Part shown: in pieces, positions 44,730 to 53,052 of the stretch
Layout: every line of letters begins with the position of its first letter
Numbering within the stretch: position 1 is the stretch's first letter
Source of the DNA: Candidatus Rokuibacteriota bacterium
GTDB taxonomy: Bacteria; Methylomirabilota; Methylomirabilia; Rokubacteriales; CSP1-6
Assembly: GCA_016200085.1 (NCBI GenBank)
Contig: JACQFL010000036.1
Coordinates: 1 to 64,000, forward strand
Length of the DNA stretch: 64,000 nt
Reading direction: 5' to 3'
Notes under the pieces: generated by a model
What the model saw: only the letters and a program-made list of their open reading frames with translations
Database searches by the model: none
What the model was told of the DNA's origin: nothing
Made by a program: the position numbers and the translations under genes

Positions 44730-45359
44730 TCAATAGAGCTGCTTGGCGTACGCCTCCTGGATACCGCGCTCGTACTCCTCCACCGTGACGCCCTGGGGCT
44801 TGATCTGGTCGTAGAGGACGCACGCCAGCGAGGGCAGCGCCTCGGGTCCCGGCCAGCTCTCCTGAGCCCACAGACGCGAGCGGCGGAAGGCTTTCGCACA
44901 GTGCAGGTACGCCTCTTCGACCTCGACGCCGATGCCGAGCGGCGGGGTCTTGCCTTGCACGGCGCAGCGCTGGAGGAGCTCCGGATCGCGGGTGATCCAG
45001 CCGCGGCCGTTCACGCGCAGGGTCTCCTCGCGGCCGGGCACGAGGAAGATCAGCCCGACGTGGGGATTGGCCACGAGGTTGCGCATGCCGTCGAGGCGCT
45101 TGTTGCCCGGCCGGTCCGGAATGACGAGACGGTGCTCGTCGAGCACGAGCACGAAGCCGGGAGCGTCACCTTTGGGCGAGACGTCACAGCGGCCGTCCGC
45201 GCCAGCCGTGGCCAGGAGCAGGAACGGCGAGCGCGCGATGAAGGCGCGGAAGTGCTCGTCGAGGGCCGGCCGCTCCTTCTGCAGGGCGCGGGTGCTGGGG
45301 GTGCCCATGATCTCGCGCAGCTCGCGCTCGGTCGTCACCACCTTGTCGAATGGAATCAT
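44730..45359 (-). CDS. Pyridoxamine 5'-phosphate oxidase-family (PPOX) FMN-binding protein, MSMEG_1061-like
   Basis: A 209-residue split-beta-barrel flavoprotein. Typical segments are F-L-L-L-A-T-A-G-A-D-G-R-C-D-V-S-P-K-G-D, I-P-D-R-P-G-N-K-R-L-D-G-M-R-N and N-P-H-V-G-L-I-F-L-V-P-G. The family name comes from mycobacterial proteins; the activity is unknown, and FMN-dependent reduction is likely. It is not PdxH, since the PLP-site residues differ. ATG 45359 follows a good AGGAGG site. Together with the F420-type gene downstream it forms a pair of flavin or deazaflavin enzymes. Confidence 0.88.
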   Translation of the reverse strand: MIPFDKVVTTERELREIMGTPSTRALQKERPALDEHFRAFIARSPFLLLATAGADGRCDVSPKGDAPGFVLVLDEHRLVIPDRPGNKRLDGMRNLVANPHVGLIFLVPGREETLRVNGRGWITRDPELLQRCAVQGKTPPLGIGVEVEEAYLHCAKAFRRSRLWAQESWPGPEALPSLACVLYDQIKPQGVTVEEYERGIQEAYAKQLY

Positions 45360-45589
45360 CGAGGCCTCCTGGGCCACCGAGTGTACCGCGCAGCGGCGTG
45401 GACGGGACAGCGGAATCCGTGCTACCCAGTCCGTGCGAGCCGGGCCGGAGCGGGAGGCGCGTCGATGCCAGATCCCACGGAATTCACGTTCACGAGCCGG
45501 GCGGCCGGATCGGGATCGCGGTGTGGGGGCCGCTCGACCGGTCGCCCTGGTTCGCCGCCCTCCACGGCCGTGGCGCGGGCCTGAAGGCG

Positions 45590-46123
45590 ATGATCCGCCT
45601 GCCCATGCTGCCGCGGGAGGCCCTCGACGCCGGTCTCGCCGAGATGGCGGAACGGTGGCAGGCCGATGGCGGGGACGTCAACTTCATCCGGACGTTCGGC
45701 CGGCTGCCCGAGACGCTCAAGCGCTTCGTCGCCTTCTACTCGCCGCTCGTGCGCCGGGGCCTCGTCGAGCACCGGACGAAGGAGCTCGTGCGGCTGCGCC
45801 TGGCCCAGCTCAACCGATGCCACTACTGAACGTCCACCCGCTATGCCTCGGGAAGGCATCAGGGCATCACGGAGGCGGTGGTCGCCGCGCTCCCGACCTT
45901 CGAGTCCGGATCTTTCAGCGAGCGGGAGAAGGCGGCCCTGCGCTACGCCGAGCAGATGTACGCCGACCACCACGCCGTCGACGACGCGCGGTGGACAGCG
46001 CTGCGGGTCCACTTCAGCGACGACGAGCTGCTCGAGCTGACGTGGGCGATCGCGGAGTTCATCGCCCTCGGCAAGGCGATCTACGTGCTCGGCGTGCCGT
46101 ACGGCGGTGCCGATCCGGGCTGA
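45590..46123 (+). CDS. CMD/AhpD-like protein with in-frame UGA: candidate selenoprotein (C-H-Y-U)
   Basis: A carboxymuconolactone decarboxylase/AhpD-family protein, 177 residues if UGA 45827-45829 is read through as selenocysteine 80. Before UGA it reads R-T-K-E-L-V-R-L-R-L-A-Q-L-N-R-C-H-Y. After it, in the same frame, T-S-T-R-Y-A-S-G-R-H-Q-G-I-T and an intact C-terminal half continue to TGA 46123. UGA replaces exactly the second Cys of the redox C-x-x-C motif (Cys77). A stem-loop follows at SECIS-like spacing. ATG 45590 starts the conserved N-terminus M-I-R-L-P-M-L. The alternative is a nonsense mutation of a Cys codon. Peroxide- or disulfide-linked redox chemistry is expected. Confidence 0.72.
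45843..45859 (+). promoter_or_regulatory. Candidate bacterial SECIS stem-loop
   Basis: ATGCCT (45843-45848) pairs perfectly with AGGCAT (45854-45859) around the five-base loop CGGGA; CCC (45837-45839) and GGG (45862-45864) can extend the lower stem. The loop starts 19 nt after the UGA and has G in its first two bases. This agrees with the published bacterial SECIS pattern as I recall it (loop 16-37 nt from UGA, G at loop position 1 or 2). Confidence 0.6.
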
Positions 46124-46236
46124 CCCGATCCCCTCCGGCCCCGGCGGAGGAGTCCGGCTCGATTCGGCCGTCAAATCAAGGCGTTTCGCGTCTTGACCGT
46201 GCTGGGGGGCCGTCGTACCGTCGATTCGATGCCACC

Positions 46237-46890
46237 ATGCTCGTGAGGCCGTTGCTGCTGGCCGCCGTGGTTGTCACCCAGCTCGTCACACCCGTGGCGG
46301 CGGGCCGCGTGGAGGTGAGGGTCGCCGACGACCGGGGCGATCCTCTCGAGGACGCCGTGGTCTTCCTGGCGGGCGGCACGCCGCCCCCGGGGCGGTCCGG
46401 ACTGCGTGCCGTGATGAGCCAGCGCGACCGGGAGTTCGTGCCGCGCGTGCTGCCCATCCTCGCCGGCACCGCGGTCTCCTTCCCCGACCACGACGATGTC
46501 CGTCATCACGTCTACTCGTTCTCACCCGCCCACAAGTTCGAGCTGGCGACGGGCCGGAGGCAGCCGGACGCGCCGATCGTGTTCGACACGCCCGGGGTCG
46601 TCGTGCTCGGGTGCAGCATCCACGACTGGATGCTCGGCTACGTCTACGTCCTGACCACGCCGCAGTTCACGAAGACCGGCGCGGATGGCCGGGCGCGCAT
46701 CGACGGCGTCCCCGCCGGCCCGTGGCGGGCGCGCGTGTGGCATCCGCGCCTGCGCGGCGCCGAGTCCGCCACTACGCAGGCGGTCGCCGTGCCAGCCAGC
46801 GGCACGGTGTCCGCAGTCTTCACGATCGCGCTGACGAGGGAGTGGCGGCTGCCGCGGCCGTTCATCGGGCGCTCCGAGCGGGCCCCGTAG
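46237..46890 (+). CDS. Periplasmic cupredoxin-like protein, paralogue of 37498-38193
   Basis: A 217-residue secreted protein (signal ends near V-A-A-G). The core reads F-V-P-R-V-L-P-I-L-A-G-T, D-D-V-R-H-H-V and L-G-C-S-I-H-D-W-M, giving the same C-x2-H-x2-M copper-ligand pattern as the gene at 37498. A regulatory-like beta-sandwich follows (G-V-P-A-G-P-W-R-A-R-V-W-H). Its stop overlaps the GTG of the hybrid sensor kinase (TAGTG), so the two are translationally coupled. The protein may therefore feed a copper or redox signal to that kinase, which is inference. Confidence 0.78.
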   Translation: MLVRPLLLAAVVVTQLVTPVAAGRVEVRVADDRGDPLEDAVVFLAGGTPPPGRSGLRAVMSQRDREFVPRVLPILAGTAVSFPDHDDVRHHVYSFSPAHKFELATGRRQPDAPIVFDTPGVVVLGCSIHDWMLGYVYVLTTPQFTKTGADGRARIDGVPAGPWRARVWHPRLRGAESATTQAVAVPASGTVSAVFTIALTREWRLPRPFIGRSERAP

Positions 46891-49107
46891 TGCCGTCCTT
46901 CCGCTTCCGCAGCTTCCGTCTCCGCATCGTCGTCCTGTTCCTCGCCCTGCTCGTGCTCGTCGAGGGGATCGCCTTCCTGGTCGTGGACGCGGCCCATCGC
47001 CAGGCGGCCTGGACCCAGATCGACGACGAGCTGCTGGTGGCGAGCCGCGTGTTCAATCGCCTGATCAGCGCCCGCATCGACCAGCTCTCCGGGGCCGCGC
47101 GGCTGCTGTCCGGAGACTTCGCCTTCAAGTCGGCCTACGCGATGACCGATGGCGACACCGTGCTGTCGGCGCTCCAGAACCAGCAGGCGCGGATCCGGGC
47201 GGACGTGATGGTGCTGGTGTCCACCGCGCGGCGTGTGGTGGCCGACACGCTGCATCCGCGGCTGCGCGACGCCCTTTTTCCTTTCGTCAACCTGATCCAG
47301 GAGGCGGAGGACAACGGCCAGGCCATCTCGATCGTCTTCGTCGACCGCCGGCCCTACCAGGTCGTCGTCGTCCCGCTCCTGGCGCCCCTGCCGGTGGCGT
47401 GGATCGTGATGGGCTTCCTGATCGACGACACGCTCGCCCACGAGCTGCAACGGCTCACGCACGTCCACGTGACCTTCGTGACGGTGGATCCACCCGGCGC
47501 GCCCACGCCCTTCGCGTCGACGCTGCCCCCGGCGCTGCGCGCGCCGCTCGCCGCCGCGCTGCCCCGCAGCCTCGGAGCCTCGCCGCTGACCTTCCCCCTC
47601 TCGGTGGGCGGCCGGGAGCTCGTCTCCCACTTCGCCGGGCTGGGCCGCGCGGAGGACGTCGGGGTGGCCGCCATCCTCCAGTCACCCGTCGACGAGGCCT
47701 TCGCGCCCGTCTACCGCCTGCGCATCCGGCTGGCGGCGCTCTTCGTCAGCAGCCTGCTCGTGTCCTTCGTGGTGGGCGCACGGATCGCCCGCTCCGTGTC
47801 GCGGCCGGTGGAGACCCTCGTGCAGGGCGTGCACGAGATCGAGCGTGGCCACTACGCCCATCGCGTCGTGGTGGCCCAGCCGGACGAGCTCGGCGAGCTG
47901 GCGGCGGCGGTGAATCACATGGCGGTGCAGATCGCCGAGCGCGAAGAGGCCCTGCTCCTGAGCGAGGAACAGCTGCGGCAGGCCCAGAAGATGGAAGCGA
48001 TCGGCCGGCTCGCGGGCGGCATCGCCCACGACTTCAACAACCTCCTGACCGTGATCACCGGACACAACGAGCTGCTGCGGGCAGAGCTCGGTCCCGAGGC
48101 GGCCGGGGTGCGCGCCCACGTCGACGCCGTGGAGACCACGGTCGACCGCGCGGTGACGCTGGTGCGCCAGCTGCTCGCCTTCAGCCGCAAGCAGGTGCTG
48201 CAGCCGCGAGTGCTCGACCTCAACGAGATCGTCACCAACATCAGCACGATGCTGCGCCGGCTCATCGGCGAGGACATCGACCTCGTGATGGCCGTGGGCG
48301 CGGGACTCTGGCCCGTCAAGGTCGATCCGGGCCAGTTCGAGCAGGTCATCGTCAACCTTGCGGTCAACGCCCGCGACGCCATGCCCGGGGGGGGGCCGGT
48401 TGCTCCTGCGCACCGCCAACGTGGAGCTCTCCGAGGCCGACGCGCGCCAGGCCGGCGTCTATCCCGGGCCCGTCGTGCTCCTCGAGGTGACCGACACCGG
48501 CGAGGGGATGAGCGAGGAGGTCCGCGCCCACCTCTTCGAGCCGTTCTTCACGACCAAGGAGCCAGGGCGGGGCACCGGGCTCGGGCTGTCCACGGTCTAC
48601 GGGATCCTGAAGCAGCACGGGGGGGGCATCGTCGTTGACACCGAGCCCGGCCGCGGCGCCACCTTCCGGATGTACCTGCCGCGCGCGGAGGAGCCGATGA
48701 CGCCCGCGGAGGTGCGCCTGCCGCTCGCCCGTTCCGAGCGCGGCCAGGAGACGGTCCTGCTGGTGGAGGACGAGGACGAGCTCCGCGAGCTCTCGCGCGA
48801 CGTCCTCGAGCGCCGGGGCTACACGGTGCTGGCCGCGCGCGACGGCGTGGAGGCGCTGCGCCTGTTCCAGCGCCACGTGGGGCCGATCCACCTCGTGGTG
48901 ACCGACGTCGTCATGCCCCAGATGAGCGGCCGCGAGCTGGTCGAGCGGATCTCCTCGCTGCGCCCAAATCTAAAGACGCTCTACATCTCCGGCTACACCG
49001 ACGGCACGGTGCTGCCGACGCCGTTCCTCCAGAAGCCATTCCGCCCCACCGAGCTCGCCGCCAAGGTCCGCGAGGTTCTGGGGACGGCCGTCCCGTTCGT
49101 CCGATGA
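46890..49107 (+). CDS. Hybrid sensor histidine kinase, interrupted by a +1 frameshift in a G9 run
   Basis: About 739 residues when the frame is corrected. The N-terminal membrane helix ([11 protein letters not shown]) is followed by a periplasmic sensor of about 250 residues, a second helix, HAMP, HisKA ([11 protein letters not shown]), HATPase_c and a C-terminal receiver domain ([12 protein letters not shown]). The first frame breaks after [10 protein letters not shown] at nine G residues (48387-48395). With eight Gs it would join R-L-L-L-R-T-A-N in the second frame, which carries the rest of HATPase and the receiver. A sequencing or assembly error, or slippage, is likely. Confidence 0.82.
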
Positions 49108-52140: not shown

Positions 52141-53052
52141 CTACTGCATCTTCGGGTCGAGGGCGTCACGGACGCCGTCGCCGAAGAAGGTGAACGAGAG
52201 CATCGTCACCGCGATGGCGATCGATGGGAACACGCACAGGTGCCAGTACGACCGGAGGTACTGCTGGCCCTCGCCGACCATCTGGCCCCAGGACGGCGTG
52301 GGCGGGTTGATGCCGACGCCGATGAACGACAGCGCCGCCTCGGTGAAGATCGCCTCGGGAATGCCGAAGGTGACGGCGACCACGATCGGCGTCAGCGCGT
52401 TGGGCATCACGTGGCGCCGGAGCACGCGGACGTAGCCGGCGCCCAGCGCGCGCGCCCCTTCCACGAACTCCTTCTCCTTGAGGCTCAGCACCTGGGCCCG
52501 CGTCTGACGCGCGATGCCGACCCAGCCGGTGAGCCCGATGGCGATGAAGATGTTGAGCAGCCCCGCCCCGAGCGCCGACATCACCAGGATGACGAAGAGC
52601 AGGCGCGGGAAGGCGTACATGACGTCGATGAAGCGGGTGAGGGCGATGTCGACCCGGCCGCCGATGTACCCCGAGAGCGCGCCGAAGGGCACCCCGATCA
52701 GCACGACGATGACCTGGGCGCCGAGGCCGACCACCATCGAGATGCGCGCCCCGTAGATCATCCGCGAGAGCAGGTCGCGGCCCAGCGCGTCGGTGCCGAG
52801 CAGGTGGTCGCGCGAGGGGAACTCGTTCAGCGCCCCGAAGTTCGTCTTGGTGTAGCTGAAGGGCGCGAGGAAGTCGGCGAGCACCGCCACCAGCGCCATG
52901 AGGACGATGACCACGCCCCCCGCCATGGCCAGACGATTGCGGAGCAGGCGGCGGGCGCCGTCCCGCCACAGGCTCGACGACGCGGACGCCTTCGCTCGAG
53001 CGGCGACCGCCGGCCCGGCGCTAGTAGCGGATGCGGGGGTCGAGAACGCCAT
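52141..53052 (-). CDS. dppC: ABC transporter permease, DppC-like
   Basis: A 303-residue inner-membrane permease. The OppC N-terminal region has the L-L-R-N-R-L-A-M-A-G helix. L-L-G-T-D-A-L-G-R-D is the family hallmark. The EAA loop (E-G-A-R-A-L-G-A-G, coupling to the ATPase) is present, with about six helices. It overlaps the DppB-like gene by 32 bp and precedes the binding protein by 25 bp. Confidence 0.93.
   Translation of the reverse strand: MAFSTPASATSAGPAVAARAKASASSSLWRDGARRLLRNRLAMAGGVVIVLMALVAVLADFLAPFSYTKTNFGALNEFPSRDHLLGTDALGRDLLSRMIYGARISMVVGLGAQVIVVLIGVPFGALSGYIGGRVDIALTRFIDVMYAFPRLLFVILVMSALGAGLLNIFIAIGLTGWVGIARQTRAQVLSLKEKEFVEGARALGAGYVRVLRRHVMPNALTPIVVAVTFGIPEAIFTEAALSFIGVGINPPTPSWGQMVGEGQQYLRSYWHLCVFPSIAIAVTMLSFTFFGDGVRDALDPKMQ

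What the first reader, a model, noticed from the sequence alone, without database searches (positions are those of the whole stretch)
45590..46123. Candidate selenoprotein: CMD/AhpD-like protein with UGA at the second position of its CxxC motif
Seen: one frame encodes a complete CMD domain except for TGA at 45827-45829, exactly where the family has the second redox Cys (C-H-Y-UGA). The downstream half is intact and family-like. Perfect 6-bp arms ATGCCT/AGGCAT enclose the loop CGGGA, 19 nt past the UGA, with G in the first two loop bases. Known: bacterial SECIS elements sit in that spacing range, and CMD/AhpD-like selenoproteins have been predicted in environmental bacteria. Inference: this is selenocysteine; a normal annotation would split it into two fragments.
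Basis: partly seen in the sequence, partly recalled or inferred. Interest (0 to 1): 0.92.

Follow-up and report, generated by a model that had tools for sequence, protein, structure and literature searches.

The report
A selenium-using CMD-fold redox enzyme
This gene of an uncultured soil and groundwater bacterium almost certainly reads one UGA stop codon as the selenium amino acid selenocysteine at the active site of a small redox enzyme; it is a convincing new member of an enzyme kind in which selenium use was already known.

Summary
One frame (45590-46123, +) encodes a complete CMD/AhpD-fold protein interrupted only by TGA at 45827-45829, at the second Cys of the CxxC motif. A 6-bp hairpin with a G-rich loop follows. 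The genome has tRNA-Sec, selA and selB on one contig, and a selD that itself holds an in-frame UGA. Eleven orthologues from other genera (61-75% identical per half) all keep the UGA; both halves evolve under similar purifying selection. Of 52 relatives aligned, 44 have an in-frame UGA, all 44 as CxxU. The hairpin covaries and beats a synonymous-codon null. Outside Rokubacteria seven of twelve relatives have UGA, each with a 6-8 bp GGC-loop hairpin; five have Cys. CxxU CMD and AhpD-like selenoproteins have been in print since 2005, so this is a new member of a known kind. Its particulars: it is below the cut-off of all five NCBIfam models it matches, the AhpD His is Arg in 42 of 44, and about half the CMD matches in six related genomes hold one UGA. 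The reaction is inferred.

The parts
45590..46123 (+). Selenoprotein gene, CMD/AhpD fold, 177 residues with Sec80; read by table 11 it ends at 45829
   Evidence: ATG 45590 matches the MRIPM start of orthologues, at least four of which (L024, L025, L027, L030) have a GGAGG- or GGGGG-like run just upstream; the window itself has only GAAGG
45827..45829 (+). UGA read as selenocysteine 80, second position of the CxxU motif
   Evidence: all 44 UGA members read have CxxU here; solved Cys relatives align Cys at this column
45818..45820 (+). Cys77 codon (TGC), partner of Sec80
   Evidence: C in 44 of 44 UGA members
45782..45784 (+). Glu65 codon (GAG), 12 residues before Cys77, the spacing of the AhpD proton-relay Glu (relay recalled)
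   Evidence: E in 43 of 43 members that reach this column
45839..45841 (+). Arg84 codon (CGC), where crystallised AhpD-like relatives have His
   Evidence: R in 42 of 44; His in the five solved relatives printed
45843..45859 (+). SECIS-like hairpin ATGCCT / AGGCAT around CGGGA; the two G at 45850-45851 are invariant in the 34-row alignment

Best explanation
The gene makes a 177-residue CMD/AhpD-fold selenoenzyme. Supported by sequence evidence: the genome encodes tRNA-Sec, SelA, SelB and SelD; a conserved hairpin sits just 3' of the UGA; and the protein is conserved on both sides of it. Inferred: SelB reads the hairpin and inserts Sec80; Sec80 is the attacking selenolate of a Cys77-x-x-Sec80 pair, reduces a peroxide or another oxidised substrate, forms a selenenyl sulphide with Cys77, and is reset by a thiol donor. 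Glu65 would act as base, and Arg84 rather than the usual AhpD His would steady the selenolate. I give Sec insertion about 0.97, a thiol/selenol redox role about 0.9, and peroxide as the substrate about 0.5.
For: tRNA-Sec 69.8 bits, over its cut-off, which 5 of 14 control genomes also pass; ARAGORN anticodon tca; selA 586.9 bits, cut-off passed by 1 of 14 controls; selB 362.7 bits, 2 of 14; selD 334.8 bits, 2 of 14, with one TGA, motif CAGU. The 11 closest orthologues all keep UGA. Mean identity 0.71 and 0.70 and median dN/dS 0.32 and 0.33 before and after the UGA, 66 pairs of 12 sequences. Covariation on 34 of the 44 members: 63 cells changed on both sides against 20.5 shuffled, score 0.598 against 0.174 shuffled and 0.103-0.189 slid. 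Synonymous null over all 44: mean 5.91 of 7 pairs against 3.18, highest of 2000 null means 3.66. Independent of that set, 7 of 7 UGA relatives outside Rokubacteria have a 6-8 bp stem with loop GGC at one shared place. Cys at the column in five other relatives. Model pLDDT 91.9; first solved match AhpD of Deinococcus 6k40, TM 0.86.
Against: Folding energy of the window's hairpin region is not significant. In one search two of five measures do not exceed the shuffles: pairs with a change on both sides (6 against 5.4) and further pair types (16 against 15.2). Three of 44 members (L024, L025, L082) have only a 4-bp perfect SECIS-like stem and at most 3 of 7 pairs in register. No Rfam SECIS matched 45500-46200 at E up to 10. 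Two of 11 orthologue genomes (G061, 95% complete; G077, 77%) show no selA and no selB over cut-off; both are drafts, and in the window's genome these genes share one contig, so a missing contig is my inference. Arg replaces the His of solved relatives, so AhpD peroxidase chemistry cannot be assumed.
Confidence: 0.95

Rival explanations
1. Pseudogene or sequencing error: TGA is a chance stop in a decaying or misread gene.
For: A single in-frame stop in one draft genome would look like this; by table 11 the frame splits into ORFs 45350-45829 and 45878-46123.
Against: The same codon at the same motif position in 44 members; equal conservation on both sides. Among 100 CMD matches in 8 genomes that I chose, 48 hold exactly one TGA and none a TAA or TAG, by my count of the listed rows.
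Confidence: 0.01
2. UGA is read as tryptophan or another ordinary amino acid (code change or read-through).
For: UGA reassignment is known in other bacteria (recalled).
Against: At the C-terminal end some members stop at TGA and others at TAA or TAG at nearly the same place, so TGA still ends genes; relatives have Cys, not Trp, at the column; Sec machinery is present.
Confidence: 0.01
3. A true selenoprotein, but not a peroxidase: a Sec-dependent reductase of another substrate, for example a reductive dehalogenase in the manner of the CMD-fold debrominase Bmp8.
For: Bmp8 matches by profile (49.4 bits) and by fold (TM 0.80, 16-17% identity); the AhpD His is Arg in 42 of 44. That Bmp8 works somewhat like thyroid deiodinase is recalled; no paper on it was found.
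Against: Closer sequence and fold matches are AhpD-like proteins; none of the four neighbouring genes scanned points to halogens.
Confidence: 0.08

Closest known systems
AhpD-like and CMD-domain selenoproteins of 'The microbial selenoproteome of the Sargasso Sea' (PMC1088965; passages seen)
   Same: CMD/AhpD proteins with CXXU; SECIS-like stem-loop downstream; Cys homologues
   Different: Those were marine metagenome sequences; this is a Rokubacterial clade with Arg after the motif. I did not align the two sets
NCBIfam NF053654 GroundWater_YciW, YciW-related (seleno)protein
   Same: Best-scoring NCBIfam model, 68.3 bits
   Different: Its cut-off is 310 bits, so the window protein is outside it
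TIGR01926 peroxidase-related enzyme (listed as AhpD-like, CxxU, in the 2026 review PMC13188914; passages seen)
   Same: Near whole-length match, 49.6 bits
   Different: Below the 81.8-bit cut-off
AhpD-like crystal structures 6k40, 2oyo, 2prr, 2ijc
   Same: Same fold, TM up to 0.87
   Different: Cys instead of Sec and His four residues later where printed (2ijc, 6k40); Arg here

Membership tests
Bacterial selenoprotein | In-frame UGA at a conserved redox position with Cys homologues | tested here: met
   44 UGA members, all CxxU; five Cys relatives outside Rokubacteria and five CxxC loci in the set
Bacterial selenoprotein | SECIS-like hairpin just 3' of the UGA with G in the loop | tested here: met
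   three of 44 members are weak
Bacterial selenoprotein | selA, selB, selD and tRNA-Sec in the genome | tested here: met
Bacterial selenoprotein | Selenium physically present in the protein | not testable with these tools
   needs 75Se labelling or mass spectrometry
CMD family PF02627 | Score over the gathering cut-off | tested here: met
   45.2 bits against 23, Sec read as Cys
NF053654 GroundWater_YciW | Score over 310 bits | tested here: not met
   68.3 bits
TIGR01926 peroxidase-related | Score over 81.8 bits | tested here: not met
   49.6 bits
NF041238 AhpD_rel_CFYUT | Score over 175 bits | tested here: not met
   21.4 bits
Canonical AhpD peroxidase | Glu, Cys-x-x-Cys and a His four residues later (relay recalled) | tested here: not met
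   Glu and C/U met; His is Arg in 42 of 44, His in one, Ser in one
Canonical AhpD peroxidase | Alkyl hydroperoxidase activity | not testable with these tools
   needs purified protein

The most novel reading that the evidence does not exclude
In Rokubacteria the CMD fold has become a large, diverse family of selenoenzymes (48 of 97 CMD matches in six related genomes, and 7 of 12 in the window's genome, hold one UGA), and the clade of this window, with Arg where AhpD has His, uses Sec for a reaction other than AhpD peroxide reduction.
Probability: 0.25. Interest if true: 0.6.

Novelty: new member of a known kind. Interest (0 to 1): 0.38.

Why it matters
Annotation by the standard code cuts this gene, and many like it, at the active-site codon, so redox enzymes of uncultured soil and groundwater bacteria are likely to be lost or labelled as fragments (inference; I did not see the public annotation). 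The family is a good test bed for what Sec adds, because the same column is Sec in some lineages and Cys in others.

Tried and rejected
Chance stop, sequencing error and code change were tested against the family and rejected. Folding energy was a weak test of the hairpin: mean z -0.96 over 44 members, with four control stretches of the same genes at -0.03 to -0.48; pair counts were better. A covariance model of the hairpin, searched over the own genome, found two of its own training sequences strongly and otherwise weak matches, the best 27.7 bits (E 1.3e-4). I looked at the frames of the next six and saw no convincing UGA-containing gene. So the model does not reveal the other selenoproteins of this genome.

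Neighbourhood evidence led nowhere. Twelve window genes were compared with the regions around 11 orthologues, in which one neighbour, 46237-46890, was by mistake given one base out of frame; seven neighbours were repeated with correct frames. The only matches are weak or to common kinds: RecQ helicase at 23-31% identity in four regions, and the histidine kinase at 34-41% in two, beside, one match of the gene at 52898. Four of the 11 regions (L135, L136, L140, L144) share neighbours among themselves, not with the window.

A paper on Bmp8 was sought and not seen. The plasmid search gave a Cys relative from Novosphingobium, motif CANC. A first scan of genome contigs with the single protein found nothing.

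Rows dropped: 62 loci were read. Eight gave no match and two were duplicates (L056, L057), leaving 52. Of these 44 had an in-frame UGA in the matched stretch. Eight had none: five CxxC (L053, L076, L077, L078, L080), two lacking the motif region (L075, L081), one without Cys at either place (L079). The covariation alignment used 34 of the 44, protein alignment A2 17, A3 12.

Full report
What is there. The frame 45590-46123 on the + strand encodes 177 residues broken by a single TGA at codon 80. With that codon read as Cys, the protein matches the CMD family PF02627 at 45.2 bits (cut-off 23) across residues 40-121, on both sides of the codon. In the five solved relatives whose alignments were printed the column of codon 80 is the second Cys of CxxC. 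Thirteen nucleotides after the TGA begins a 6-bp perfect hairpin, ATGCCT-CGGGA-AGGCAT, whose loop starts after 19 nucleotides.

The machinery. The window's genome (3.57 Mb, 57 contigs, 94.6% complete) has tRNA-Sec (69.8 bits, over cut-off; anticodon tca), selA and selB in that order on contig C54, and selD on C12. The tRNA-Sec cut-off is passed by 5 of 14 control genomes, selA's by 1, selB's by 2 and selD's by 2. SelD itself reads CAGU, with a stable predicted fold after it, so this genome has by sequence at least one further, classical selenoprotein.

Relatives. A search of 95 genomes of the phylum found matches in 68. The row list was cut; in the rows shown almost all carry one TGA, seven carry none, and three carry an extra TAG. 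Those three (L039, L042, L044) have the TAG at the end of the match. The query held Cys at the column, so Cys relatives were not disfavoured. The eleven closest orthologues, from other genera of the same family, all have UGA. The other twelve are titled Terriglobia (2), Blastocatellia, Acidobacteriota, Acidobacteriaceae, bacteria HR08 and HR10, Burkholderiales, Solirubrobacterales (2), Acidimicrobiia and Pseudomonas. The first seven have UGA, the last five Cys. Of 52 relatives aligned, 44 have an in-frame UGA. In these 44 the first motif residue is Cys in 44, Glu stands 15 before the Sec in 43 of 43, and Arg four after it in 42.

Selection. Among the window gene and its eleven orthologues mean identity is 0.71 before and 0.70 after the UGA, and median dN/dS is 0.32 and 0.33 over 66 pairs; the window gene against each orthologue lies at 0.65-0.75 before and 0.61-0.71 after. 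A dead downstream half is not credible. No convincing neighbour is shared with the window, so the conservation does not come from a large shared block.

The hairpin. Aligned without gaps, 34 of the 44 members have invariant G at columns 24 and 25, in the loop. For the 7-pair stem around it, 83.6% of cells pair against 57.2% shuffled and 35.7-48.7% when slid; cells changed on both sides number 63 against 20.5; the covariation score is 0.598 against 0.174 shuffled and 0.103-0.189 slid. Two measures do not stand out from the shuffles: pairs with a change on both sides, 6 against 5.4, and further pair types, 16 against 15.2. With protein and codon usage held, all 44 average 5.91 of 7 pairs against 3.18, and none of 2000 null sets exceeds a mean of 3.66. 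Seven UGA relatives outside Rokubacteria, not used in any of this, each have a perfect 6-8 bp stem with loop GGC at one shared distance from the UGA. Against this: seven of the 44 have three pairs or fewer in register; four of these (L027, L030, L031, L062) form a 6- or 7-bp stem in another register, and three (L024, L025, L082) do not. Folding energy alone is weak, and Rfam has no SECIS match.

Structure and function. A model from 17 aligned members has mean pLDDT 91.9. The best solved matches are AhpD-like proteins, 6k40 first, TM 0.86. The printed solved relatives have His four residues after the second Cys; this family has Arg. The same Arg occurs in a Cys relative from Novosphingobium, so it marks the subfamily rather than Sec use. 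That the second Cys of AhpD meets the peroxide is recalled, not tested; if so, Sec sits at the reactive place. The substrate is unknown; peroxide is my first guess, a dehalogenase-like role after Bmp8 a weaker one.

Breadth. In the window's genome 7 of 12 CMD matches hold one TGA. Besides the window gene five read CxxU (C3, C35, C29 and C15; C17) and one, on C22, reads N-T-H-U without the first Cys. I then searched eight genomes that I chose, four of them because they hold the orthologue. 48 of 100 matches hold one TGA and none a TAA or TAG, by my count of the rows; I did not check the motif of each. All 48 lie in the six genomes of the same family (97 matches); the two others had 0 and 3 matches and no TGA. 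selA passes its cut-off in 83 of 95 genomes of the phylum. Nine of the eleven orthologue genomes have it; G061 and G077 have neither selA nor selB over cut-off.

What is known. CXXU AhpD-like and CMD-domain selenoproteins were reported from the Sargasso Sea in 2005 (PMC1088965, passages seen). Reviews of 2022 (PMC9312934, passages) and 2026 (PMC13188914, passages) list them. The latter says that a Methylomirabilota MAG was predicted to hold 63 selenoprotein genes, with a caution about co-assembly, citing Deng et al. 2026, which I have not seen. NCBIfam has several AhpD-related (seleno)protein models; the window protein is below the cut-off of all five models it matched. Paper searches that joined selenoprotein or selenocysteine with Rokubacteria, Rokuibacteriota, Methylomirabilota or NF053654 showed, in their listings, no paper on this clade's selenoproteins apart from that review (one search listed 15 of 58, and I opened none of the others). 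The library lacks most subscription journals, so this does not show that nothing is in print.

Verdict. It is a new member of a known kind.

Noticed in passing
L075 and L081 (G059:C115, G049:C55): Two relatives keep about ten N-terminal residues followed directly by the part after the UGA, without the motif and hairpin; either short-repeat deletions or assembly collapse.
   Followed up: no
L055 and L058 (G000:C35:34800-35405): Two CMD matches side by side, one with CTYU and one with no stop: perhaps a double-CMD protein with one selenocysteine; similar close pairs appear in other genomes.
   Followed up: no
L060 (G000:C22:5888-6070): A CMD match whose motif reads N-T-H-U, a lone in-frame UGA without the first Cys.
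   Followed up: partly
L017 (G000:C12:115796-116740): SelD of this genome is itself a selenoprotein by sequence, motif CAGU.
   Followed up: partly
window 46881-49107, + strand: A sensor histidine kinase appears split over two frames (46611-48638 and 48358-49107): a frameshift or a sequence error near 48360-48400.
   Followed up: no
window 44730-45377, - strand: The divergent neighbour is an MSMEG_1061-type FMN-dependent PPOX flavoprotein (TIGR04025, 260 bits); not found beside the 11 orthologues.
   Followed up: partly
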